From a virus, in IMG/VR virus record IMGVR_UViG_3300023109_000141, positions 1 to 23,787 of that record: a DNA stretch of 23,787 nt. One strand, given 5' to 3'. Under the pieces are notes generated by a model. It worked only from the letters and a program-made list of their open reading frames with translations, had not been told where the DNA came from and made no database searches. The position numbers were made by a program, and so were the translations under genes. Of this stretch, positions 20 through 23,787 are shown in pieces; within the stretch, counting starts at the first letter, position 1; each line of letters opens with the position of its first letter.

Positions 20-27
20 TATTTATA
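20..27 (-). promoter_or_regulatory. T4-type late promoter TATAAATA pointing out of the window
   Basis: A perfect TATAAATA on the minus strand sits three bases past the terminator, repeating the terminator-then-promoter layout seen at 6814-6872. It should drive the next gene, beyond the left edge. ATG triplets at 17-19 and 11-13 are too close to the motif to be accepted as starts without more sequence. Confidence 0.8.
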
Positions 28-134: not shown

Positions 135-3100
135 TTAATTAATGTATATTGCAACTTTTGGTGAACCCGCTGAACCATTGGCGACATAGACGGAGTTATT
201 ACCGCTAGTGGGGAATGGAGATATTCCGTGGCTGTGATTACACCAAAAGTTTTCAGCATTGTTCAAAATTTCACGAGATAATGCCAAAACACTATAATCC
301 CCGCCAGTGAGACTAACGCCTGAAGTTTCTTGATGCCAGTGTGTTTGATACCCCGCAGAGTTTGTTCCAGATCCAGAATTCGCAAACGCAGAAGGACCAA
401 TAGTAGTAGTATTAATTGGTCTTACATTACAAGTTAACAAATCTGCAATTGCATATCTTTGTGTAGCAGTCCCAGAGTTGCTGGTAAACACATATGTGAT
501 TGTTGTTCCTGCCGCAATTTTAGAAGCAAAATACGAGTCAGTTGCATAACGATTTTCATAAGTCGGCGAAAGGGCAGAGATGTCGTTTGAAGCAACCGCG
601 TTCAATTCATATCCGTTAACATTATTATATCCATAAGTGTTATAATAAGCAACCAACGTTCCATAAGTTGGATCTTCTAAGCACAAAGGACCAGTCGTAC
701 CCCAAATAGGATGTTCGTCGGTAGTGAACAATGTGGCGCCTGTGGCAAAGCCTGATGGTAGTGACGGTATGTTAGTAACGTTCCAATCATTGAGGTTCTG
801 ATCAAATGCAGCAGCGTTATTGAACATAGAAGTCATGTTGGTAACAGCGCCAGTGTCCCAACCAGATATACTCCAAGAAGCCGGTGCAGTTAAGTCAAAG
901 ATATATGCTTTACCTGAAGTAGTACCACCAGCATCATCTTCGCCCCGAGCACTGACGATAGCATAAGTATCAGTAATGATTACTTTGGATCCAAAGTAAT
1001 CATTTGCGCTCGTACTATAAGCATTAGGATTATCTAAAGTATGGAGTAATGCACCAGTGGCATTGTTGTAGATATATGCTTTGCCTGATCTAGTACCACC
1101 AGCATCATCTTCTCGATAAGCACCGACGATAGCGTAAGTATCAGTTATTGCTACTGAGTGTCCAAAGTAATCATTTGCACTTGTACTATGAAAATTAGGA
1201 TTATTTAAGGTATGTACTAATGCACCAGTGGCAGTGTTGTAGATATATGCTATACCTGAATAGGAAGCAAGCGCCTGAGCACCATATTCAGCATAAGCAC
1301 CTACGATAGCATAGGTGTCTGATATTGCTACTGAGTATCCAAAGTAATCATTTGCGCTCGTACTATAAGCATTAGGATTATTTAAGGTATGTACTAACGC
1401 ACCAGTGGCAGTGTTGTAGATATATGCTTTACCTGAATTAGCACCGCCAGCATCATCTTCAGCCCAAGCACCGACGATAGCATAAGTATCAGTTATTGCT
1501 ACTGAGTGTCCAAAGTAATCATCTGCGCTCGTACTATAAGCATTAGGATTATTTAAGGTATGTACTAACGCACCAGTGACAGTGTTGTAGATATATGCTT
1601 TACCTGAAGTAGTACCACCAGCATCATCTTCGCCCCGAGCACTGACGATAGCATAAGTATCAGTTATTGCTACTCTGTATCCAAACATATCATCTGCACT
1701 TGTATTATAAGCATTAGGATTATTTAAGGTATATACTAACGCACCAGTGGCAGTGTTGTAGATATATGCTTTACCTGAACCAGTACCGCCAGCCTCATCT
1801 TCGCCCCAAGCACCGACGATAGCATAGGTGTCTGTTATTGCTACTGAGGATCCAAAGTTATCATTTGCACTCGTACCATAAGGATTAGGATTATTTAAGG
1901 TATGTACTAACGCACCAGTGGCAGTGTTGTAGATATATGCTTTACCTGAATTAGCACCGCCAGCATCATCTTCAGCCCAAGCACCGACGATAGAATAGGT
2001 GTCTGATGATGCCATTGCGTATCCAAACGTATCATTTGCGCTCGTACTATAAGCATTAGGATTATCCAACGTATGCTTTAATGCAACCGAAAACTCACCA
2101 CTACCAAATTTAGATGCGTCTTTGAACATACTACTCATATTGGTGACAGTGCTGACATCCCAAGAACTAATATCTTCATTGAATGCCGTGGCATTCGCCA
2201 ACATCGATTCCATATTAGTAATCGGTGCTGATGTCTCGATGCCGACATTAGGAATGAACTGATATCCAGCCGGCGCAAAATTGTTTCTCCAAGTTGAGCT
2301 GGTAGGATCTGTTGCAGTATTGCTCATTGGGTATGCATAGCGCCCCTTAAATATGTAAACCGCCCCAGAATTGCTCTGAGAAGCGGAATCTTCCCCTTTC
2401 GCGGAAGATGCAAAAAACCTCCCCGAAATTGCAACTTCAGTTCCAAACCGATCATCGGATCCGGTGGCAGAATATGTGTTCGGATTATCTATAGTATGTA
2501 ATAAGCTACCTGATACTGCGTCATATACATAACATTTGCCAGAATCTGCTCCCGCAGATCCAGATTCATACCACGCACTTACAAATACTGATCTTTGGTC
2601 AATAGCGACAGACCATCCCATATAATCAAACTCTGTTCCGTTGTCGGGATTTGGGTTGTCGATTGTGTGTAATAACGTGCCGGCAGATATGTCGTATATG
2701 TATACCTTACCGGAACCCGCCCCTACCGCATCGTCAGATTCGCCGAAAGCACCTACTACAAGATAGTTTCCGTCAATTGCGCAGTCAATTCCAAAGTTGT
2801 CTAACGAGCTTGTCGAGTGAGCATTTGGATTGAGGAATGTGTGTATTCTGAGACCGGTTGATGCGTTGTAAACATATGCTACGCCCGAATTACTTCCGTC
2901 AGCAGCATCCTCTTCTACCGTAGACACTACCACGTAATTTCCAGAAATGTCTACGACTTGACCAAATTGATCGCCCGTAGGCGCTCCATATGCGTTTGGA
3001 TTGGTTAACGTATGAATAACATTTCCAGCAGACGCCGAGCAAATGTACGCCTTATCTACCCCAAATCCACCTACGACAACAGTCCCAGAATCTATTTTGA

Positions 3101-4091
3101 CCGAATGGCCGAAATAAGCACCAGCATCTGGGGAGTTTATTGTTCTCAGCAAAGATCCTGACATATTGAATATGTCGACTTGCTCTGCAGATCGGTTTCC
3201 GACTACGATATATGTCCCGTCAGTTCCTACCGCATTTCTCCTTGCCCAGCTTCCGATTTCTACTGGCGTCGGGCACAATATTGTCTGTTCTACTGATCCC
3301 GTAGCATTATTGATTACATAAACTGCACCATATCCGTTGTTTGCTTTATCGACACCTAGTACCGTATATTGATCGGTCATGTCTAATGATAAATCGGATT
3401 CGCCTATGACTGGTCCGAGGTCTTCGACATTTATAGAAAATGTGTTGGATACTGCAAGAGGAGACCAATCTATAAAAGAAGAACTTTCGGCTGGCGTTTG
3501 GGGGTTGCTAGAATTCAGAATAATCGCTGCAACTTTCCAGTCTGTCCCGCCCCAGTATTTCAGCTCAGATGATTGGGCATCAAATACGACTTCGCCATTG
3601 TTGCCGGATATTGGTAGGGCTTGTGTTGTTGCATATTCGGGAATATTGAATATATTTGAAGAATTTTGAAACTTGCCCGCAAGACTATTGTATACCAATG
3701 TTTGGTCATTTTCTATTGTCGACAATTGAACATTATGAATAGTTTCTAGAGTTATATTAGACCAAGATTTTGATGCTCCGTTGCTACCAAAAAATTTTTC
3801 AGAAGAAGTTGCGTCAATTACGATATATTCTCCCGAGACCGCAGAGCTCTGCAGCTGCAGAACATTTCTAATTGCTTTTGCAATTTGTCTAAGCTCGAAA
3901 GCTTGCGCTGTGGTTGCTAACACTTCCGCTCGACTATTGGTCGCGATTTCTAGTGCCGAGTTTTCTCGCTGCTCCAGCCTGGGCCCAACACTCGATAGAT
4001 TGTACAATTCTTTTGCCGATGCTGAGTTAGCAATTTCGATAGCCCTAGAGCTTATAGCAGAAATTGAGTTCAATAGATTTTCGTCGGTCAT
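135..4091 (-). CDS. Giant adhesin paralogue, 1318 residues, twin seven-blade FG-GAP sets and BspA-like repeats
   Basis: Last gene of the cassette, with AAGGAG eight bases before the ATG. Residues 1-80 match the shared helical domain (N52-S53-R54), and the cap LKYWGGTDWKVAA follows near 185-200. Residues about 218-581 form seven FG-GAP-type blades of 44-58 residues. A BspA/DUF285-like stretch (TNMESMLANATAFNEDISSWD) spans about 622-671. Residues 673-1067 are seven further blades of 57 residues, nearly identical to each other. The BspA-like pattern then resumes (GWDTGAVTNMTSMFNNAAAF). The last 190 residues (about 1130-1318) are a Tyr/Asn/Thr-rich end domain with HWHQE and a NHSHG segment. FG-GAP repeats build beta-propellers in integrins and lectins, and BspA-like repeats are surface-binding modules. 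The protein is therefore very likely a host-binding tip; the receptor is unknown. Fold and role are inferred from repeats. Confidence 0.86.
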   Translation of the reverse strand: MTDENLLNSISAISSRAIEIANSASAKELYNLSSVGPRLEQRENSALEIATNSRAEVLATTAQAFELRQIAKAIRNVLQLQSSAVSGEYIVIDATSSEKFFGSNGASKSWSNITLETIHNVQLSTIENDQTLVYNSLAGKFQNSSNIFNIPEYATTQALPISGNNGEVVFDAQSSELKYWGGTDWKVAAIILNSSNPQTPAESSSFIDWSPLAVSNTFSINVEDLGPVIGESDLSLDMTDQYTVLGVDKANNGYGAVYVINNATGSVEQTILCPTPVEIGSWARRNAVGTDGTYIVVGNRSAEQVDIFNMSGSLLRTINSPDAGAYFGHSVKIDSGTVVVGGFGVDKAYICSASAGNVIHTLTNPNAYGAPTGDQFGQVVDISGNYVVVSTVEEDAADGSNSGVAYVYNASTGLRIHTFLNPNAHSTSSLDNFGIDCAIDGNYLVVGAFGESDDAVGAGSGKVYIYDISAGTLLHTIDNPNPDNGTEFDYMGWSVAIDQRSVFVSAWYESGSAGADSGKCYVYDAVSGSLLHTIDNPNTYSATGSDDRFGTEVAISGRFFASSAKGEDSASQSNSGAVYIFKGRYAYPMSNTATDPTSSTWRNNFAPAGYQFIPNVGIETSAPITNMESMLANATAFNEDISSWDVSTVTNMSSMFKDASKFGSGEFSVALKHTLDNPNAYSTSANDTFGYAMASSDTYSIVGAWAEDDAGGANSGKAYIYNTATGALVHTLNNPNPYGTSANDNFGSSVAITDTYAIVGAWGEDEAGGTGSGKAYIYNTATGALVYTLNNPNAYNTSADDMFGYRVAITDTYAIVSARGEDDAGGTTSGKAYIYNTVTGALVHTLNNPNAYSTSADDYFGHSVAITDTYAIVGAWAEDDAGGANSGKAYIYNTATGALVHTLNNPNAYSTSANDYFGYSVAISDTYAIVGAYAEYGAQALASYSGIAYIYNTATGALVHTLNNPNFHSTSANDYFGHSVAITDTYAIVGAYREDDAGGTRSGKAYIYNNATGALLHTLDNPNAYSTSANDYFGSKVIITDTYAIVSARGEDDAGGTTSGKAYIFDLTAPASWSISGWDTGAVTNMTSMFNNAAAFDQNLNDWNVTNIPSLPSGFATGATLFTTDEHPIWGTTGPLCLEDPTYGTLVAYYNTYGYNNVNGYELNAVASNDISALSPTYENRYATDSYFASKIAAGTTITYVFTSNSGTATQRYAIADLLTCNVRPINTTTIGPSAFANSGSGTNSAGYQTHWHQETSGVSLTGGDYSVLALSREILNNAENFWCNHSHGISPFPTSGNNSVYVANGSAGSPKVAIYIN
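891..2075 (-). repeat. Seven ~171-bp near-identical tandem repeats (FG-GAP blades)
   Basis: Seven units lie in tandem with a period of 171 bp. The fifth in coding order is 177 bp. The landmark attagga starts at 1023, 1194, 1371, 1542, 1713, 1884 and 2055. The consensus blade is HTLNNPNAYSTSANDYFG, then S-V-A-I-T-D-T-Y-A-I-V, then GEDDAGG, then SGKAYIYNTATGALV. Blades 1 and 4 share an identical middle, as do blades 3 and 7, while blade 5 has a replaced segment (YGAQALASYS). The upstream blade set (about 2346-3440) lacks this DNA-level similarity. Confidence 0.95.
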
Positions 4092-4136
4092 TTAGCCAAC
4101 TCCTTAGTAGATGATGATTGTACTATGGCCAAATAA

Positions 4137-4165
4137 TGTGCTCGGACAAACTATGTCCGAGCACA
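4137..4165 (-). other. Perfect 12-bp inverted repeat between adhesin genes
   Basis: TGTGCTCGGACA (4137-4148) and TGTCCGAGCACA (4154-4165) are exact reverse complements around a five-base loop. On the minus strand the stem is followed by ATTATTTGG, which is T-rich but not a clean T-run. It begins only eight bases after the upstream stop. It may be a leaky terminator, an mRNA-stabilising end or a processing site that sets the ratio of the small and giant adhesins. Confidence 0.85.
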
Positions 4166-4172
4166 AGAGTTT

Positions 4173-4712
4173 CTAGGATACCGCGACGCTATACCACCCA
4201 GAACCGGTGAATATATACATTCGGTTGTTAGATGTCACTAGCGCTTGGTCTCCTGCAGAATTTCCGCTGACGGGAAGCTCAGAAGGATTTGTAAAAACTG
4301 ACATTCCTCCAGCTGGAGCCGAAAATGAAAACTCTCCAGAAGTTGGATTATACGAAACATCTCCAGAAGATTGTACCATCTCTCTGGTTCCCTGCTGCGA
4401 ATAATATTGGTTCGATGAGCCCGCAGGGACATCATCTGAATTAGCAATTGACACTCCTCCGGTATCACTCTCTCTGGTGATAAGCTTATTTACGCCTCTG
4501 CTTAATCTGTCTATATCTTTAGCGGTTGCAGTTGTCGTCAATGATAGGGCTCTGATATTAAAATCAGTTTCTACTTCTCCATCTGTATCCAGTCCGGTAT
4601 TTTTAGCGGCTCTGGATAATTTTAACATACTGGTCGAATTCGCAGCACCCACTTCTGAGCGAATCTTAACTTTCATTGCCCCGATTGATGCTTGTAAATT
4701 TGTATCTGCCAT
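4173..4712 (-). CDS. Adhesin paralogue, 179 residues, minimal cap
   Basis: Third gene of the cassette, starting MADTNLQASI like the first gene's MADSNLTTSI, with GAGG ten bases before the ATG. The shared helical domain carries N52-I53-R54 in register with the first and fourth genes. The adapter differs: DDVPAGSSNQYYSQQGTRE followed by a VSYNPTSGEFSFSAP strand pair. SxNQYYxxxRxR-type segments of this kind are common in phage fibre proteins. It ends with the cap NNRMYIFTGSGWYSVAVS. No extra domain is attached. A strong hairpin follows its stop, before the largest paralogue. It is likely a trimeric structural or adaptor protein. The evidence for kinship with its neighbours is the aligned N-terminal landmark and cap, not overall identity. 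Confidence 0.8.
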   Translation of the reverse strand: MADTNLQASIGAMKVKIRSEVGAANSTSMLKLSRAAKNTGLDTDGEVETDFNIRALSLTTTATAKDIDRLSRGVNKLITRESDTGGVSIANSDDVPAGSSNQYYSQQGTREMVQSSGDVSYNPTSGEFSFSAPAGGMSVFTNPSELPVSGNSAGDQALVTSNNRMYIFTGSGWYSVAVS

Positions 4713-4740
4713 GTCTATTATTCCTCGTTATTTTGTATTA

Positions 4741-5331
4741 TTATGAAGAAACAAATGAACCGAACGCGGTCCATGCACTTCCATTCCAATAATAAATGTT
4801 GCTATTCTCTATAACAAAAGCAAAAGCGCCTGAAGACGCACTTGCTGGCAAACTCGCGACTGTACTATATTCTTTAGCAGTAGTCTTATTTGTGAGCTCG
4901 CCGCCGCCCCAAGCTCCAGAGTTGTATATTGGCACTTGGCCCGCCGCAAGCCCAGACAATTCAGATACGTCTGATAATGCAGGAGCTCCCCAAGAAAGAT
5001 TTGTCCCGTCTGTCGTGAGATATTTGCCAGAATTGCCAGACTGTACAGGAAGTTCTCTTCCGGACTGGGTATTAGGCTGAACTAGATCTAAAACTTTTGA
5101 TAAACTGTCCGCCAAGTCCAAAAGAACATCCACATCATCCTCTGTTGCAAGAAGAGTTTCTAGTCTCGTGTTGATCAATGATTCAATAGTATCATTGTCG
5201 GTCTCTTTCAAATTTTTAACCATTCTTGCATATTTTAAGAGATCATCCTTATTTGCAGTAATGATTTGTGATTCGATGTCAGCGACCATTAAAAGTCTTG
5301 CTGAATCTAATGCGCTATCTAAATATGACAT
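4741..5331 (-). CDS. Adhesin paralogue, 196 residues, minimal cap
   Basis: Second gene of the cassette, with CGGAG eight bases before the ATG. The first 80 or so residues are the shared helical domain, with N54-T55-R56 two residues later than in its neighbours. The stem adapter is clear: SGKYLTTDGTNLSWG near residues 100-114, then GQVPIYNSGAW. The protein ends with the uninterrupted cap IYYWNGSAWTAFGSFVSS. GKYLTTDGT and LYYW-type caps are widespread in phage fibre proteins. Nothing is added beyond the cap, so this may represent the ancestral form, a short spacer or a capping subunit. The large upstream and downstream paralogues show that the same end can accept whole extra domains. Function in attachment or baseplate decoration is inferred. 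Confidence 0.8.
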   Translation of the reverse strand: MSYLDSALDSARLLMVADIESQIITANKDDLLKYARMVKNLKETDNDTIESLINTRLETLLATEDDVDVLLDLADSLSKVLDLVQPNTQSGRELPVQSGNSGKYLTTDGTNLSWGAPALSDVSELSGLAAGQVPIYNSGAWGGGELTNKTTAKEYSTVASLPASASSGAFAFVIENSNIYYWNGSAWTAFGSFVSS

Positions 5332-5358
5332 TCGTGTTTCTCCGTTATAATTCTTTTT

Positions 5359-6249
5359 TTAGTTTGCAGCCGTTACATCGACCCAAGGGCTGGCCACGGT
5401 AATAGTTCCTACCATTGCTGAATGATTGCCGCACTGATAATATAAAGTGCTGGGTGCGTCATAAGGAACTGTGATTGTCACATTACCTGCTGTGGATCTA
5501 GAGTTTGATACTCCGCTCGTATATTCTCCTACATAACTTCCTGCAACAAACCCAGCACCCGAATCTGTCGTGAAATACAAAGGGTGTCCTGTGGTAGTTG
5601 AACCGTCCAGCGCAAATGTGTATGTACTTCCTCTATAAAAAGTTAATGCAGGATTATTTTCGGTATCGACGACATATGCACCACTAACGGCAGTTACATT
5701 GTGCGTTGCGCTTTTTATGTAATAAAATTTGAAGTCAGATCCGACAAGGATAATTTCGCCCTTTGTTGACTGTGCTGGGATGGCTGATATATCAGCAAAT
5801 GCTCTAAATTTCGCTGCGGCAGTAGGGGTGGCTGATAGTTTATTGGCAGTTTCGTCATATACCAAAACGTCGCCGTCTGAGGGAGTTCCTACTAGTGCGT
5901 CCATGTCGGTCAACGAAACCTTACTCCAAGAAGTCGACATTCCGTTTGTCTTTAGCACACTTCCTGCAGAAGACGAGTCATCCGGAAATTGAACTCCGTC
6001 TACAAACTTAGTTTCTAGCATGTTAGCCAGTGCTCGGGTCAATTTGAGCTTTTCGTCTATGGTTGATCCAGAATAAAGAGTGAGTATTCTGGAATTAACA
6101 GCGGCCTCAGCGGCCGCGTCATCAGTTTTTTTAATCTTTTTAATAGCATCTGTAATGTCTGCAAGTTCTGATGCGCTAGCACCACCAATCAAAGTCTGAG
6201 CTCGACTCAAGACTGCTGCGATTGATGTGGTTAGGTTTGAATCTGCCAT
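5359..6249 (-). CDS. Adhesin paralogue with inserted cupredoxin-like domain, 296 residues
   Basis: This is the first gene of the four-gene cassette, with an AAAGGAG ribosome site. Residues 1-80 are a helical domain shared with the next three genes, with N52-S53-R54 as a landmark. Residues about 90-175 are a stem adapter (VLKTNGMSTSWSKVSLTDMD, GDVLVYDE). The cap hairpin is split: FYYIKS ends at residue 180 and SPWVDV resumes at 287. Between them is a beta domain starting near NPALTFYRGSTYTF (199-212). It has His222 in GHPLYF and then Cys273, His276 and Met279 in YYQCGNHSAMVG. This is the ligand set of type 1 copper proteins, although the short C-x2-H-x2-M spacing is not that of plastocyanin. 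Related YYxCxxHxxM segments occur in marine phage structural proteins, from memory. Whether copper binds is unknown; the fold may serve purely as a binding tip. Confidence 0.83.
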   Translation of the reverse strand: MADSNLTTSIAAVLSRAQTLIGGASASELADITDAIKKIKKTDDAAAEAAVNSRILTLYSGSTIDEKLKLTRALANMLETKFVDGVQFPDDSSSAGSVLKTNGMSTSWSKVSLTDMDALVGTPSDGDVLVYDETANKLSATPTAAAKFRAFADISAIPAQSTKGEIILVGSDFKFYYIKSATHNVTAVSGAYVVDTENNPALTFYRGSTYTFALDGSTTTGHPLYFTTDSGAGFVAGSYVGEYTSGVSNSRSTAGNVTITVPYDAPSTLYYQCGNHSAMVGTITVASPWVDVTAAN

Positions 6250-6306: not shown

Positions 6307-6314
6307 TATTTATA
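6307..6314 (-). promoter_or_regulatory. T4-type late promoter TATAAATA (for the four-gene adhesin cassette)
   Basis: A perfect TATAAATA on the minus strand, 57 bases before the ATG at 6249. An AAAGGAG ribosome site lies in the leader. No other copy of this motif was seen before the following three genes, so all four are probably transcribed from here. Confidence 0.86.
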
Positions 6315-6889: not shown

Positions 6890-9800
6890 TTAAATATCAG
6901 ACATTGACATTACAGATACTCTAACATGGCTTGATTCCGTGAGGTAACAAGTGACTTTGTTTGAAGTAGTCTGTTCTACGGGTACGAGGTCATTAGCATA
7001 CAGACCGTCGTCGCCCAATACCATAACTTGGACAATCAGATAATCTGAGCTCAAGTTGTGCTGGACTTCGTGGGTCAGAGCTGTTGCTGTAGACTGATAA
7101 ACAAACTTCGTAGAGTTTACTGCAGTTCTGATCGCGCTGTCTCCGGCGATTCTGGCAGCCTGTTCTGTCGCAAGATCCGACTCAACATCGCCAATTTCAG
7201 ATTCCAATTGATCCTGAGATGCTTTGATCGCTGCATCCAACAACACATCAACGGCCTTAAGTGAACTTCCACCTTGCGCGCCATTAATGTAGTTTGTAGT
7301 TGTGTGCGCTACGTATGTGCCGTCAGTTTCGAGACCAGCGGCGAGCTCGATCGCGTCAATTTCAACGCCTACGTTTGCTGCTACATCTGATTCGAGTGTA
7401 GCAATCGCATCTGTGTTGACTTTGATCTGCTGAGACAACTGCAAATCTGCATTATGGAGCGAAGTTGCATCATCAATGTAATCAGCACTTGTATGTGGAT
7501 CATATGCACCAGTGGCCAAAAGGCCTGCGCCGGTTTGAGTGACCGTAAGTTCTGAATTGATTGCTGAGTCAGCAGCTGTACGATCAATTACTTCTTGTGC
7601 AATTGCATCGGAAGCAACTTTGATCTGAGCGTCTAACAACTGATCCGCTTGATATAGAGTCCCTGCACTCTGAATATAGTTTGAGGTTTGATCTGAATCA
7701 TACCCGCCACTTGTGGTCAGGCCGGCAGCTGCTTGTGTCGAATCCAACTCGGACTGAATGGCAACAGCGTCAGATTCTACGGCAGCAATTTGAGCCATAA
7801 CTGAAGCAGAAACCCTAACACCGCTAGCAGACTTAGACATAGTGCCTCCGTCCAACTTCAACTGAAGAGTAGCATCAGTATGAATCGAGGGGGTCGAGCC
7901 ATCTTGAGACAGCATTAAGCCAGAATCTGACGCAAGGTCTAAGCCAATTTCGTCAGAAGGGAGTTCTACAACACCAGCACCAAATGCCAAGAACAGTTCG
8001 TTTCCGTCTTTCTTGATACCCGCACCAGCAAGGATCTGGCCCGCGCCAGAGAACTGGATGAAGTGGACGTCAGTCGTGCCAACTGTAGCAACTGGCTCGC
8101 CAAGAACCCAACCAGTATCTGCATACTGATTACCGCTTGTGACAAAGATAAAGTCTCCTCCTGCCATTTCAGCCGGGGTGTCGAAATCTGATGAACGAGT
8201 CAATACTGTTGTCGAAGTAACGTCGTAAATACCGTTGTGAGCTAGGTTTGCCTGACCATTAACGATAATTCTCTCGCCAATAGAAACTGAGTGTCCGTCG
8301 AGGTCTGTCGCAAGATTTAACACATTCGCCATGGTCAGCGTAGCGCCAACACCAACAGAACCATTACTATAGGTAACAACTCCACCAGAAATCGATTCCA
8401 GCGTACCGGTAAGAACTACTTGTGCCTGTTCGTGGACGTGAAGTCCTTCAGATACTGCGTCGACATATGCTTTGTTAGCAGCATCGCCGTCAGCAACTGG
8501 GGCGGAAAGGTTAGTAATTCTATTTGTGTCCATGTTCAAGACACCCGACATGGTGTCTCCAGATTTTGCAACTGCCGCGTCTGCGAGATCGTATGACGTT
8601 TTGATAGCAGCATCTAGGTCTGTGTCGACTTCGAACATGGTTAATGAGTTATCAATGTAGTTTGTAGATGTGTGAGCAACAAAAGCACCATCGGTGCCAA
8701 GACCTGCAGCTGCTTGAGTTGTAGTAAGCTCTACGTCTACACTGTTGAGTGTTGAAGCTAACAACTCGTCTGCTGAAACCAGTGAAGAGGCCCCACTGAT
8801 AATCGGAGCAGAACCGTTAGGAACATACTGGCCAGCACTGCTAAGGCCCGAACCGGTTTGAGTCGAGTCGAGCTCAGTCTGGAGAGCCGTGACTTGAGAG
8901 GCTCTTAATGCTTCTTCCGTATCGAGATCGTCGGCGACAACTTTAAGCTTTGCATCCAACAACACATCAACGGCCTTAAGTGAACTTCCACCTTGCGAGC
9001 CATTAATGTAGTTTGTAGTTGTGTGCTCTACGTAGGTGCCGTTAGCTTCAAGACCGGTGGCAACTTCGATCGCGTTAACTTCAGCTTCTAGAGAGGCAAT
9101 ACCGCCTGATATAGAACCAGAAACTGAATCGGCAACAGTTTTGATTTGAGCATCTAGCAACACATCTGCGCCTTGCAACGAGCTCGCGCCATTAATGTAG
9201 TTTGTAGTTGTGTGACTAATGAACGAACCATCCGTGGCAAGCCCAGCGGCTGCTTGAGTAGTGGTAAGTTCTGAGTTAGTATTTGAAATAGCCGTCTGAT
9301 TTGCAGCATCACTACTAGCTCTAGTGGAAGCTTCTAATGTTAATGCATCATTGGCAGCTTTGAGCGCTACAGACAACTTAAGGTCTGCATCGCTTAACGA
9401 TGTAGCAGAACTAATGTAATCCGCAGATGAGTGTGCGTCGTAGGAGCCATCAGATGTGACAAGGCCAGCACCGGTTCTTGTTGCTTCGTCCTGAGTTTGG
9501 CGATTTCCCGATTCGGTAGTAACTAAGTCAGAAACAGCTTTGATCTGTGCGTCAAGCAATGCATCGACAGCCTTAACTGAAGTTCCGCCGGCAGATGCAT
9601 CAATGTAGTTTGTATTTACGTGAGCAGCAAAAGTGCCGTCGAGGTTCAAACCTACTGACGTTTCGATCGAATCCATTTCTGTGTGGATTGCAGCATCTGC
9701 AGCAGTCCGAGCAGCAGTTTCTGTTGCGATTGCAGCAGTCATTTCTTGCAAGCTAACAGTCTGACGTACTACGACAGCGTCATTAGCATCAAGACTAGAA

Positions 9801-9949
9801 AATTTAAATACTTTACTGGTAGTGTTGTACCATAATCTACCAGCAGCGACCGGAGTTGGGTCAGATGCTAGTTGTTCGATTCTCATGTTTTTCACGAATG
9901 CGTTTTCTGCAAGCTGAACACCATGAAATTTTATGAATTTATTAGACAT
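6890..9949 (-). CDS. Long tail fibre protein, 1019 residues, nine-repeat shaft
   Basis: The N-terminal 65 residues include AGRLWYNTTSKVFKF, a common fibre entry module. The shaft is made of nine related units with the pattern (A/T)-x-G-L-x-x-D/N-G-x-Y/F, then NYI, then S-L-x-x-A-D-x-L-L-D-A-x-I-K and a heptad-like helix. Six units come before the central region and three after it. The central region (about 460-720) begins SGDTMSG, carries DAANKAYVDAV near 487-497, and then a HNGIYDVTSTT / YADTGWVLGEP beta domain, all frequent in phage tail fibres. The last 70 residues form a cap resembling the 141-residue protein. It has its own late promoter and terminator, so it is a one-gene transcript. 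The likely role is a trimeric host-recognition fibre; the receptor is unknown. Confidence 0.88.
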   Translation of the reverse strand: MSNKFIKFHGVQLAENAFVKNMRIEQLASDPTPVAAGRLWYNTTSKVFKFSSLDANDAVVVRQTVSLQEMTAAIATETAARTAADAAIHTEMDSIETSVGLNLDGTFAAHVNTNYIDASAGGTSVKAVDALLDAQIKAVSDLVTTESGNRQTQDEATRTGAGLVTSDGSYDAHSSADYISSATSLSDADLKLSVALKAANDALTLEASTRASSDAANQTAISNTNSELTTTQAAAGLATDGSFISHTTTNYINGASSLQGADVLLDAQIKTVADSVSGSISGGIASLEAEVNAIEVATGLEANGTYVEHTTTNYINGSQGGSSLKAVDVLLDAKLKVVADDLDTEEALRASQVTALQTELDSTQTGSGLSSAGQYVPNGSAPIISGASSLVSADELLASTLNSVDVELTTTQAAAGLGTDGAFVAHTSTNYIDNSLTMFEVDTDLDAAIKTSYDLADAAVAKSGDTMSGVLNMDTNRITNLSAPVADGDAANKAYVDAVSEGLHVHEQAQVVLTGTLESISGGVVTYSNGSVGVGATLTMANVLNLATDLDGHSVSIGERIIVNGQANLAHNGIYDVTSTTVLTRSSDFDTPAEMAGGDFIFVTSGNQYADTGWVLGEPVATVGTTDVHFIQFSGAGQILAGAGIKKDGNELFLAFGAGVVELPSDEIGLDLASDSGLMLSQDGSTPSIHTDATLQLKLDGGTMSKSASGVRVSASVMAQIAAVESDAVAIQSELDSTQAAAGLTTSGGYDSDQTSNYIQSAGTLYQADQLLDAQIKVASDAIAQEVIDRTAADSAINSELTVTQTGAGLLATGAYDPHTSADYIDDATSLHNADLQLSQQIKVNTDAIATLESDVAANVGVEIDAIELAAGLETDGTYVAHTTTNYINGAQGGSSLKAVDVLLDAAIKASQDQLESEIGDVESDLATEQAARIAGDSAIRTAVNSTKFVYQSTATALTHEVQHNLSSDYLIVQVMVLGDDGLYANDLVPVEQTTSNKVTCYLTESSHVRVSVMSMSDI
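7233..9041 (-). repeat. Pair of ~90-bp near-identical direct repeats in the long fibre gene
   Basis: The segment 7233-7322 recurs at 8952-9041 with only a few mismatches in the aligned stretch, about 1.72 kb apart and in the same frame. Both encode the SSLKAVDVLLDA and YINGxQGG portion of shaft units 9 and 4. Other shaft units are clearly more diverged, so this pair reflects a recent copy or a conversion event. Confidence 0.85.
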
Positions 9950-23231: not shown

Positions 23232-23787
23232 TTATAACCTTATAGCCCGACTTCTTCCCAAGCGATCGATAAATGGGCCAATGAATTGATTGGAAGTTGA
23301 AATTCTGAATGGTCTCAGCTTGTAAAAAGTCATCCTTCCGTCCCGCAATCTAATTATTCCTTTAGTTTCTGAGTCAGAGTTAACTTCATCTGGATCTTGG
23401 TTTATGTCTGCATTGTCTAATGGTGTTTCTGATAACCCATCACCGTCGGTTAGATCCGAGGTTTCTGTTTCCGCTTGATCTAGGTCATCGGAAATTTCGT
23501 TTGCCTCTGACTCGGCGTCATTATTAGAACTTCCAATCTGAGATGGCTGTTCTTCTACTACATCAGCAGAATCTCCTAATTCGCTAGGCTCTTCTTCGTA
23601 TGAGTCTGAGGAACTTCCAATTTGAGATGGCTGTTCTTCTACTACATCAGCAGAATCTCCTGTGTCTTGTGGTTGTTCTGTTCCTACATCAGCAGAATCT
23701 CCTGTGTCTTGTGGCTGTTCTGTTCCTACATCCGCAGAATCTCCTGTGTCTTGTGGCTGTTCTGTTCCTACATCCGCAGAATCTCCT
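23232..23787 (-). CDS. Partial acidic repeat protein, C-terminal 184 residues (phage structural region)
   Basis: The open frame enters from beyond the window's right edge and stops at TAA 23232-23234, so its start and N-terminal domain are not visible. The visible part begins with three consecutive 14-residue units, GDSADVGTEQPQDT. Two variant units with the core GDSADVVEEQPSQIGSS follow. A long Asp/Glu/Ser-rich low-complexity stretch comes next, then a short basic and aromatic tail (RLRDGRMTFYKLRPFR ... IDRLGRSRAIRL). The acidic repeats look like a flexible, highly charged linker or decoration, and the basic tail could be an anchoring peptide. Only one base separates its stop from the ATG of the next gene, so the two are probably co-transcribed and translationally coupled. 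I do not recognise the family. Its position just before virion genes suggests a structural or baseplate role, but that is inference. Confidence 0.8.
   Translation of the reverse strand, partial: GDSADVGTEQPQDTGDSADVGTEQPQDTGDSADVGTEQPQDTGDSADVVEEQPSQIGSSSDSYEEEPSELGDSADVVEEQPSQIGSSNNDAESEANEISDDLDQAETETSDLTDGDGLSETPLDNADINQDPDEVNSDSETKGIIRLRDGRMTFYKLRPFRISTSNQFIGPFIDRLGRSRAIRL
23527..23786 (-). repeat. 42-bp tandem repeats and 51-bp direct repeat inside the acidic gene
   Basis: Three in-frame 42-bp units lie at 23745-23786, 23703-23744 and 23661-23702. The first two look identical, and the third differs at synonymous positions. The array may continue past the window edge. A 51-bp segment at 23611-23661 recurs at 23527-23577 with about one difference. 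All units keep the reading frame, so copy-number changes would lengthen or shorten the acidic linker without breaking the protein. Confidence 0.9.

What the first reader, a model, noticed from the sequence alone, without database searches (positions are those of the whole stretch)
135..6249. Four tandem adhesin paralogues with one shared docking domain and exchangeable ends
Proteins of 296, 196, 179 and 1318 residues lie consecutively under one late promoter. All begin with a helical domain of about 80 residues. The N-x-R landmark falls at residues 52-54 in three of them and 54-56 in the fourth, preceded by an acidic helix and followed by a helix ending in NxL (for example LARALANML-like, LADSLSKVL). 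All four also have a related cap (YYW/YIF-x-G-S-x-W-x-x-V). What differs is the cargo: none, none, a cupredoxin-like domain, or twin propellers. This looks like a modular receptor-binding kit built by duplication and domain capture, and the common N-terminus would compete for, or co-occupy, the same baseplate site.
Basis: partly seen in the sequence, partly recalled or inferred. Interest (0 to 1): 0.75.

Follow-up and report, generated by a model that had tools for sequence, protein, structure and literature searches.

The report
Phage adhesin family sharing one anchor
An uncultured marine T4-like phage carries a row of related tail-type proteins that share one small helical front domain but carry different, exchangeable binding modules, and one relative has fourteen of them, which suggests a modular system for recognising host cells.

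Summary
Four consecutive minus-strand genes (296, 196, 179, 1318 aa; here A, B, C, R) share an N-terminal helical domain. It is a real family: 115 proteins in 83 clusters among the loci fetched, one copy each, with no Pfam match above cut-off and no PHROG match below E 0.012.

Close relatives continue the array as A-B-C-R-Q-P; one 200-kb relative has 14 copies in three clusters. In a related contig the array precedes T4-type neck, terminase and sheath genes, the T4 gp9-gp12 slot.

Cargo exchange is real but class-specific. In array orthologues A, B and C are conserved throughout; Q and P diverge behind residue ~275, R behind ~186, though R keeps a C-terminal propeller. Distant arrays carry other cargo at position A. 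"Competition for one site" is not supported: six classes are separate lineages.

Best reading: a baseplate-periphery adhesin set with constant and variable classes. Virion location, docking and receptor binding are inferred.

The parts
5359..6249 (-). gene A, 296 aa: N-domain + linker + cupredoxin-like domain
   Evidence: homologues
5995..6249 (-). N-domain of A (residues 1-85), four predicted helices 7-21, 26-38, 45-59, 64-77 in two hairpins
5386..5706 (-). cupredoxin-like domain of A (residues ~182-288) with H...C-x2-H-x2-M
   Evidence: fold not confirmed
4741..5331 (-). gene B, 196 aa: N-domain + linker + terminal cap, no cargo
5077..5331 (-). N-domain of B
4744..4881 (-). cap module at the C-terminus of B (residues ~151-196)
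   Evidence: by eye; seed
4173..4712 (-). gene C, 179 aa: N-domain + linker + terminal cap, no cargo
4458..4712 (-). N-domain of C
4176..4316 (-). cap module at the C-terminus of C (residues ~133-179)
   Evidence: by eye; seed
135..4091 (-). gene R, 1318 aa: N-domain + linker + cap + large cargo
3837..4091 (-). N-domain of R
3501..3641 (-). cap module of R (residues ~151-197), before the cargo; similarity to relatives in this part ends at ~186-191
2349..3392 (-). first propeller of R, 7 repeats (residues 234-581); residues ~207-584 match the C-terminal propeller of four relatives at 66-67% identity
2103..2222 (-). DUF285 stretch between the propellers (residues 624-663)
897..2084 (-). second propeller of R, 7 repeats (residues 670-1065)
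6307..6314 (-). TATAAATA, T4-type late promoter motif, 57 bases before A
20..27 (-). TATAAATA downstream of R, presumably before the next array gene, which is off the contig
   Evidence: next gene inferred

Best explanation
The four genes are the first part of a longer array (A-B-C-R-Q-P in close relatives) of paralogous tail-type proteins in an uncultured marine T4-like myovirus. Each protein starts with the same ~77-residue domain, two copies of a helical hairpin. This is followed by a linker and, mostly, a small beta 'cap' module, together a mounting unit of about 180-190 residues, and then by cargo or none. I propose that the N-domain is an assembly domain that places the protein at the periphery of the baseplate, where T4 uses gp9-gp12. 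A, B and C, conserved over their whole length among close relatives, would be constant members of the complex. R, Q and P would be the adhesins: their cargo is replaced by recombination behind fixed boundaries (in R the middle changes while a terminal propeller is kept among close relatives), and their genes have been duplicated into two further clusters elsewhere in the genome. Shown: homology, internal duplication, N-terminal position, array order in relatives, classes, exchange boundaries, cargo families, T4-like surroundings in a relative. Inferred: that the window's own array continues in the same way, presence in the virion, docking by the N-domain, oligomeric state, receptor binding by the cargo.
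For: Homology of the four N-termini. Domain family: 115 non-contained proteins / 83 clusters at 90% identity and length, none with two copies; 5 of 115 ORFs are called with a 22-32 residue extension and two are cut inside the domain, otherwise it begins within the first ten residues. Internal duplication: hhalign half 1 vs half 2, probability 96.3%, score 37.7; 100 column-shuffled controls at most 13.7, reversed 13.1. Model pLDDT 90.2, pTM 0.78. Array A-B-C-R-Q-P in 4 of 4 close-relative contigs that run on past R: G001, G002, G003, G004. Copies: G001 14, G002 9, G003 6, G004 6. Six classes each one side of a branch, support 97-100 (classes were labelled from N-domain sequence, so only their match with gene position is independent; the tool warns of few columns and long branches). 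Array orthologues only (4 relatives, plus the window for A, B, C, R), median identity of aligned residues 1-80 / 81-180 / 181-275 / 276-end: A .97/.88/.76/.81, B .96/.91/.88, C .96/.93, R .95/.86/.36/.54, Q .94/.89/.82/.27, P .93/.94/.81/.34. Same class, other cargo: class-A N-domains head the cupredoxin-like domain (window clade), LamG (L144) and an unidentified part (L143) at the same place in the gene order. Array followed by gp13, gp14, gp15, TerS, T4-type TerL, sheath in L143; same order in T4.
Against: No direct evidence of virion location, docking or receptor binding. No solved or predicted viral structure resembles the N-domain at E <= 0.001, so the fold gives no functional hint. The full-length A model is poor (pLDDT 58.5). 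The window contig ends before Q, P and gp13. More distant arrays (L143, L144, L185) have A, a small gene of unassigned class, then B, and no recognisable C, Q or P, so the six-gene order belongs to one lineage. R is not simply 'variable at the tip': its last ~360 residues are 85-87% identical among G001-G004, and some pairs (R G001-G002, R G001-G003, Q G001-G002, P G001-G002) stay alignable at 46-70% beyond the boundary. The 1019-aa neighbour matches a 'head decoration' family (E 3e-21). None of six cultured T4-like phages searched by profile has the domain. Counts come from pattern scans in a few related lineages, some perhaps of the same virus, and are not independent events.
Confidence: 0.7

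Rival explanations
1. All N-domains bind one and the same baseplate site, so that the paralogues compete for it or are alternative tips of one fibre.
For: One domain family and several class R, Q and P copies per genome with different cargo; cargo-less R stubs of 189 and 192 aa that end at the cap occur in L175 and L177.
Against: The six N-domain lineages are kept apart across genomes and follow array position. A, B and C each occur once in each of G001-G004 and the window and are conserved end to end. Within one class (for example the four R copies of G001) competition remains possible.
Confidence: 0.2
2. The N-domain is an oligomerisation module only (a trimer starter), with attachment made by the linker/cap or by another protein.
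For: A small all-helical domain at the very N-terminus; weak structural resemblances include designed homotrimers (best Z 8.8, rmsd 2.5, 77 aligned, below the level the tool calls meaningful for helical bundles).
Against: Class-specific conserved lineages are more than a generic oligomeriser needs; the cap is not specific to the family (101 ORFs have it without the N-domain).
Confidence: 0.3
3. The genes encode head or neck decoration proteins rather than baseplate or tail-fibre proteins.
For: One further cluster in G001 lies directly after the major head protein gene; the 1019-aa neighbour matches phrog_2647 'head decoration' (E 3e-21) and a virion structural family; T4 has its whisker gene wac in the same slot.
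Against: The main array follows a PAAR gene and a 141-aa protein with tail-fibre matches and precedes gp13 in L143; cargo families are of the recognition type.
Confidence: 0.15

Closest known systems
Branched tailspike complex of Ackermannviridae phages (CBA120 TSP1-TSP4)
   Same: Clustered receptor-binding genes; conserved N-terminal assembly domains and variable C-termini; genes acquired between phages (passages of PMC11414711; abstract start of PMC8825819 in the listing).
   Different: There the linking domains are gp10-like (XD) in two of the four spikes. Here every member starts with the same duplicated helical hairpin, there are six classes and up to 14 genes, and cargo is propellers, lectin-like and other modules.
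Host recognition cluster (HRC) of pelagimyophages and cyanomyophages
   Same: Hypervariable structural island between VrlC and gp14 in T4-like marine phages; structural proteins with concanavalin A and other binding domains are described there (passages of PMC7029224). Our array lies just before gp13-gp14 in L143.
   Different: The passages read mention no shared N-terminal domain and no ordered classes; the profile finds no N-domain in HTVC008M or in four cyanophages. Whether our phages have VrlC was not established.
T4 baseplate-periphery proteins gp9-gp12 and whisker (wac)
   Same: Same place in gene order, before gp13-gp18.
   Different: No sequence match of the N-domain to any solved chain below E 0.33. 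Only residues 120-286 of A match the 'gp9' connector family, in the last third of that profile.
Marine phage tail fibres and C1q proteins with variable C-termini in metaviromic islands
   Same: Conserved N-terminus and variable recognition end (passages of PMC3909814).
   Different: Different N-terminal domain (T7-type) and, in the passages read, single fibres rather than a large paralogous set.

Membership tests
Phage receptor-binding protein with conserved N-terminus and variable C-terminus (architecture) | Conserved N-terminal part, sharp boundary, variable C-terminal part | tested here: met
   Met by Q and P. R is variable behind ~186 but keeps a terminal propeller among close relatives. 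B and C carry no cargo; A varies only between more distant relatives.
Phage receptor-binding protein with conserved N-terminus and variable C-terminus (architecture) | Located in the virion and binds a host receptor | not testable with these tools
   No virion or binding data.
T4 gp9-gp12/wac slot genes | Gene position before gp13-gp14-gp15-gp16-gp17-gp18 | tested here: met
   L143 against T4. The window itself ends before gp13.
gp9-type baseplate wedge tail fibre connector (phrog_677) | Match over the whole family, N-terminal part included | tested here: not met
   A matches only profile positions 280-409 of 412 with its residues 120-286; its N-domain is unmatched.
Ackermannviridae branched TSP complex | gp10-like XD linking domains or an anchor domain related to TSP4-N | tested here: inconclusive
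   No PDB chain matched by the N-domain profile below E 0.33; no Foldseek match at E <= 0.001.
Ackermannviridae branched TSP complex | Several clustered receptor-binding genes with conserved N-termini and variable C-termini | tested here: met
   (receptor binding itself not tested)
Host recognition cluster of T4-like marine phages | Hypervariable block between VrlC and gp14 | tested here: inconclusive
   Lies just before gp13-gp14 in L143; VrlC was not identified.
Type-1 copper cupredoxin | Ligand set His...Cys-x2-His-x2-Met | tested here: met
   80 of 89 distinct domain sequences keep both HP[FLVIM][YWF] and CxxHxxM (some of the other nine are truncated). Reading these as copper ligands is recalled knowledge.
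Type-1 copper cupredoxin | Cupredoxin fold | tested here: inconclusive
   No convincing PDB sequence match (best E 0.032, a viral VP1). The poor model of A has plastocyanins and multicopper oxidases among its best Foldseek rows at E ~0.01, mixed with Ig folds; none at E <= 0.001.
FG-GAP seven-bladed propeller | Seven FG-GAP-type repeats per propeller | tested here: met
   7 + 7 repeats in R of the window, the first two weak; PF14312 E 4.8e-93 with 12 stretches. No structure was predicted for R.

The most novel reading that the evidence does not exclude
R, Q and P are three obligate, non-interchangeable subunits of one composite adhesin, built on a constant A-B-C mount. The phage keeps up to three complete R/Q/P sets per genome, so each virion could display several composite adhesins with independently exchangeable parts. 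In favour: the further clusters again hold all three classes where seen whole. Cluster II is P-R-Q in G001, G002 and L179/L205 and P-R-Q-P in L178; cluster III is Q-P-P-R...R in G001 and L200. With so few clusters, some perhaps from the same virus, this could be chance or shared descent.
Probability: 0.25. Interest if true: 0.8.

Novelty: new variant of a known kind. Interest (0 to 1): 0.58.

Why it matters
Tail fibre proteins of marine T4-like phages are highly divergent and hard to identify (passage of PMC7029224). A domain that marks every member of such a set gives a handle: it finds the proteins in an assembled genome, separates constant from variable members, and points to natural exchange boundaries (about residue 186 in R, 275 in Q and P) that can be tested. 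It also raises the question why one phage would keep up to 14 such genes.

Tried and rejected
Structure searches with the N-domain model gave nothing at E <= 0.001 in PDB or BFVD; VIA-align best Z 8.8, which the tool says may mean only a common arrangement for helical bundles. PHROGs on 42 N-domains: best E 0.012, scattered. PDB profile search: best E 0.33. Cultured phages: tblastn with one N-domain gave five hits at E 0.6 or worse; whole-protein tblastn with C gave nothing better than E 0.06 among the 30 rows listed, and the listed hits of A and R start behind the N-domain; profile search in six cultured genomes gave none (the tool notes that an empty answer alone shows nothing; the same kind of search rings).

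A strong hairpin between C and R (4137-4165) looked like a terminator, but it is absent from the seven relatives aligned (three of them folded), so I leave it out. Host: the only genome-contig hit is a 37,816-base contig binned in a Saprospirales MAG, the same length as the IMG/VR contig of L011. Many genes have Shine-Dalgarno-like sites (60 of 101 against 22 of 101 shuffled, window plus six G001 stretches), which I recall as unusual for Bacteroidota, so I treat the bin as a lead only.

My first class comparison mixed array orthologues with the extra copies of R, Q and P and counted gap columns, which exaggerated the contrast (behind residue 180: A 0.75, B 0.88 against R 0.19, Q 0.28, P 0.27); one search repeats it on array orthologues only, and these are the numbers used.

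Literature: no paper held FG-GAP + tail fiber + phage + receptor-binding or cupredoxin + phage + baseplate; cupredoxin + cyanophage gave one paper, on Borgs. FG-GAP + bacteriophage + structural protein gave three papers whose titles concern other subjects. Searches for modular, multiple or paralogous fibres gave the comparisons cited; in titles and abstract starts listed I saw no description of this domain. Only an open-access library was searched, and of PMC7029224, PMC3909814 and PMC11414711 I saw passages only.

Rows dropped: of 75 rows printed, 18 were artefacts of my trimming (weak internal matches) and were removed, leaving 57. One search kept the best 80 of 344 relatives (77 loci), so the survey is not exhaustive. 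One search's 115 is after removal of contained copies from 172 ORFs. The class labels printed show B as '?' because of a slip in my script; B is identified by length, place.
Full report
WHAT IS THERE. The window is a whole 23,787-base IMG/VR virus record. Genes run on the minus strand: a repeat-rich frame cut by the contig end, 896 aa, a PAAR protein, 972, 300, 1979, 141, 1019, 68 and 71 aa, then the four genes of the finding: A 296, B 196, C 179, R 1318 aa. No tRNA was found. The PAAR protein is recognised by Pfam; the 896- and 1979-aa proteins have no Pfam match at E <= 0.01. The 141-aa protein matches tail-fibre PHROGs, the 1019-aa protein a 'head decoration' PHROG.

HOMOLOGY OF THE N-TERMINI. 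With the first 100 residues, phmmer scores are A-R 34, A-C 21, A-B 18, B-C 16, C-R 15, B-R 13 bits; the best of about 10,000 shuffled sequences per query is 12.7-14.1 bits. Five of six pairs exceed chance directly; B-R does so only through the family. A profile of the four finds the domain in relatives at E down to 4e-30, and iteration converges at 131 matches. In the 210 loci held later, 172 ORFs carry it, 115 after removing contained copies, 83 clusters at 90% identity and length. No ORF has two copies. It begins the protein except in five ORFs called with a 22-32 residue extension and two cut inside it.

AN INTERNAL DUPLICATION. The consensus suggested two repeats. Profile comparison of the first and second half gives probability 96.3%, score 37.7 over 29 columns; 100 column-shuffled controls reach at most 13.7 and a reversed control 13.1. 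The AlphaFold model of A's N-domain with 42 family members has mean pLDDT 90.2 and four helices, 7-21, 26-38, 45-59, 64-77, that is two hairpins. No PDB or BFVD structure matches at E <= 0.001. Pfam scans of 38 family proteins list no family above its cut-off whose best stretch lies in residues 1-80; PHROGs on 42 N-domains gives nothing below E 0.012.

LINKER AND CAP. Behind the domain follow a linker and a small module (YYWNGSAW in B). A profile of it is found in 72 of 83 N-domain clusters, in 63 of them starting at residues 100-199; in 11 it ends the protein. It also occurs in 101 ORFs without the N-domain, so it is not specific to this family; PHROG tail proteins match the ends of B and C. 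In A the motif appears split, with the cupredoxin-like domain between its halves (by eye, sequences).

THE ARRAY IS LONGER. A's relatives show that the four genes are followed by further N-domain genes. In the four close-relative contigs that run on past R (G001-G004) the order is A-B-C-R-Q-P. The 200,733-base G001 holds 14 copies: A, B, C once, R four, Q three, P four times. They lie in cluster I (111-122 kb), cluster II (136-144 kb, directly after the major head protein gene) and cluster III (194-196 kb and the first 6 kb). G002 holds 9. Cluster II is P-R-Q in G001, G002 and L179/L205, and P-R-Q-P in L178; L180 (R-Q), L183 (P-R) and L207 (P) show parts. Cluster III is seen in G001 and in L200/L174, one contig. 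The more distant arrays of L143, L144 and L185 have A, a small unassigned gene, then B, and other N-domain genes or none behind.

CLASSES. In a tree of 57 N-domains each class is one side of a branch with support 97-100. The labels came from N-domain motifs, so the clustering itself is not a test; what is independent is that the lineages match array positions. The tool warns of few columns and long branches. The class-A lineage includes the first array genes of G013 (L144) and G014 (L143) (support 99/97), whose cargo differs.

CARGO. In 38 N-domain proteins scanned (four of the window, 34) Pfam finds, above cut-off, FG-GAP_2, Laminin_G, TIG, ALK/LTK glycine-rich, Kelch and DUF285; below cut-off Cadherin_5, Big_9, PKD, Gly_rich_2. 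14 of the 38 had no match at E <= 0.01. Among array orthologues the median identity of aligned residues in 1-80, 81-180, 181-275 and beyond is .97/.88/.76/.81 for A.96/.91/.88 for B.96/.93 for C.95/.86/.36/.54 for R.94/.89/.82/.27 for Q and .93/.94/.81/.34 for P. In Q and P, over all copies, identity falls from 0.65-0.69 to 0.06-0.18 at residue ~275. Local alignments of array orthologues end at 270-280 in three of six Q pairs and three of six P pairs; the others run on, for example G001-G002 at 53% (Q) and 60% (P) over most of the length. In R, G004 is 91% identical to G001 and G002 up to residue 186, where those alignments stop, but G001-G003 (70% over 293 columns) and G001-G002 (46% over 610) run on. 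R also keeps a C-terminal part of ~360 residues at 85-87% among G001-G004. The window's first propeller (residues 207-584) is 66-67% identical to that C-terminal propeller (for example 1260-1637 of G001's 1637-aa protein), so in the window it stands directly behind the mounting unit and in the relatives at the far end: modules have been inserted or rearranged. R stubs of 189 and 192 aa end at the cap in L175 and L177. At position A, L144 has a LamG domain and L143 an unidentified part, behind a conserved first ~108 residues, within the gene order 1979-141-1019-(68-71 recognisable in L144 only)-extra gene-A.

SURROUNDINGS. In L143 the array is followed by proteins matching head-tail adaptor gp13, neck gp14 (PF11649), sheath stabiliser gp15, small and T4-type large terminase, and sheath. 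In T4 the genes just before gp13 are 9, 10, 11, 12 and wac. The T4 late motif TATAAATA occurs five times in the window, all on the coding strand, against a shuffled mean of 1.06 (max 4 of 200). In seven of eight close relatives a one-mismatch CATAAATA lies in the same region before A; in L009 the site reads AATAAATA.

HOW IT MOST LIKELY WORKS. The N-domain, the only part common to all members, is at the end where phage fibres attach (general knowledge), is class-specific and is more conserved than the cargo; I infer that it is the assembly domain. A, B and C are constant and R, Q, P variable, so I infer a mount plus adhesins. I do not infer competition for one site between classes; within a class it stays open. 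Confidence 0.70 for the general model, lowered slightly from 0.72 because R proved to keep its terminal propeller among close relatives and because a neighbour matches a head family.

COMPARISON. It works like the multi-spike complexes of Ackermannviridae (passages, PMC11414711) and sits where pelagimyophages keep their host recognition cluster (passages, PMC7029224). It is not shown to be a member of the former: gp10-like linking domains were not detected, and that test is inconclusive. The new elements, as far as the searches named went, are the duplicated-hairpin domain, the ordered classes with three constant and three variable, and the large copy number per genome.

Noticed in passing
window 5386-5706 (-): The cupredoxin-like domain keeps H...C-x2-H-x2-M, a full type-1 copper ligand set by recalled knowledge, in 80 of 89 distinct copies. 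343 phage records, mostly cyanophages, match A; 37 of the 40 rows listed are annotated as gp9-like tail fibre connectors. I found no paper on it.
   Followed up: partly
L118 (G001 81600-91117): Three large proteins (658, 1223, 1253 aa) upstream share a module with the C-terminal part (within residues 1697-1973) of the window's 1979-aa protein: a second paralogous set.
   Followed up: no
window 6890-9949 (-): The 1019-aa protein consists largely of repeats (by eye); homologues in L009, L144, L143 and L185 have 857-990 aa. It matches 'head decoration' phrog_2647.
   Followed up: no
window 23232-23786 (-): The frame cut by the contig end begins with tandem repeats GDSADVGTEQPQDT (by eye); G001 has it as the end of a 1154-aa protein.
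   Followed up: no
L209 / L011: The G004 contig length (37,816 bases) equals that of PAPS01000031.1, binned as a Saprospirales MAG: a weak host lead.
   Followed up: partly
window 4137-4165 (-): A 12-pair hairpin between C and R that the seven close relatives aligned lack.
   Followed up: yes
L144 5650-6642, L185 7818-8798, L143 7158-7997: More distant arrays have an extra protein of 279-330 aa just before gene A; the L144 copy has only weak PHROG matches.
   Followed up: no
G001 ends (2-982 and 197814-200732, minus strand): An R gene cut at one contig end and an FG-GAP-like frame open at the other might belong to one gene of a circular or permuted genome; not joined.
   Followed up: no
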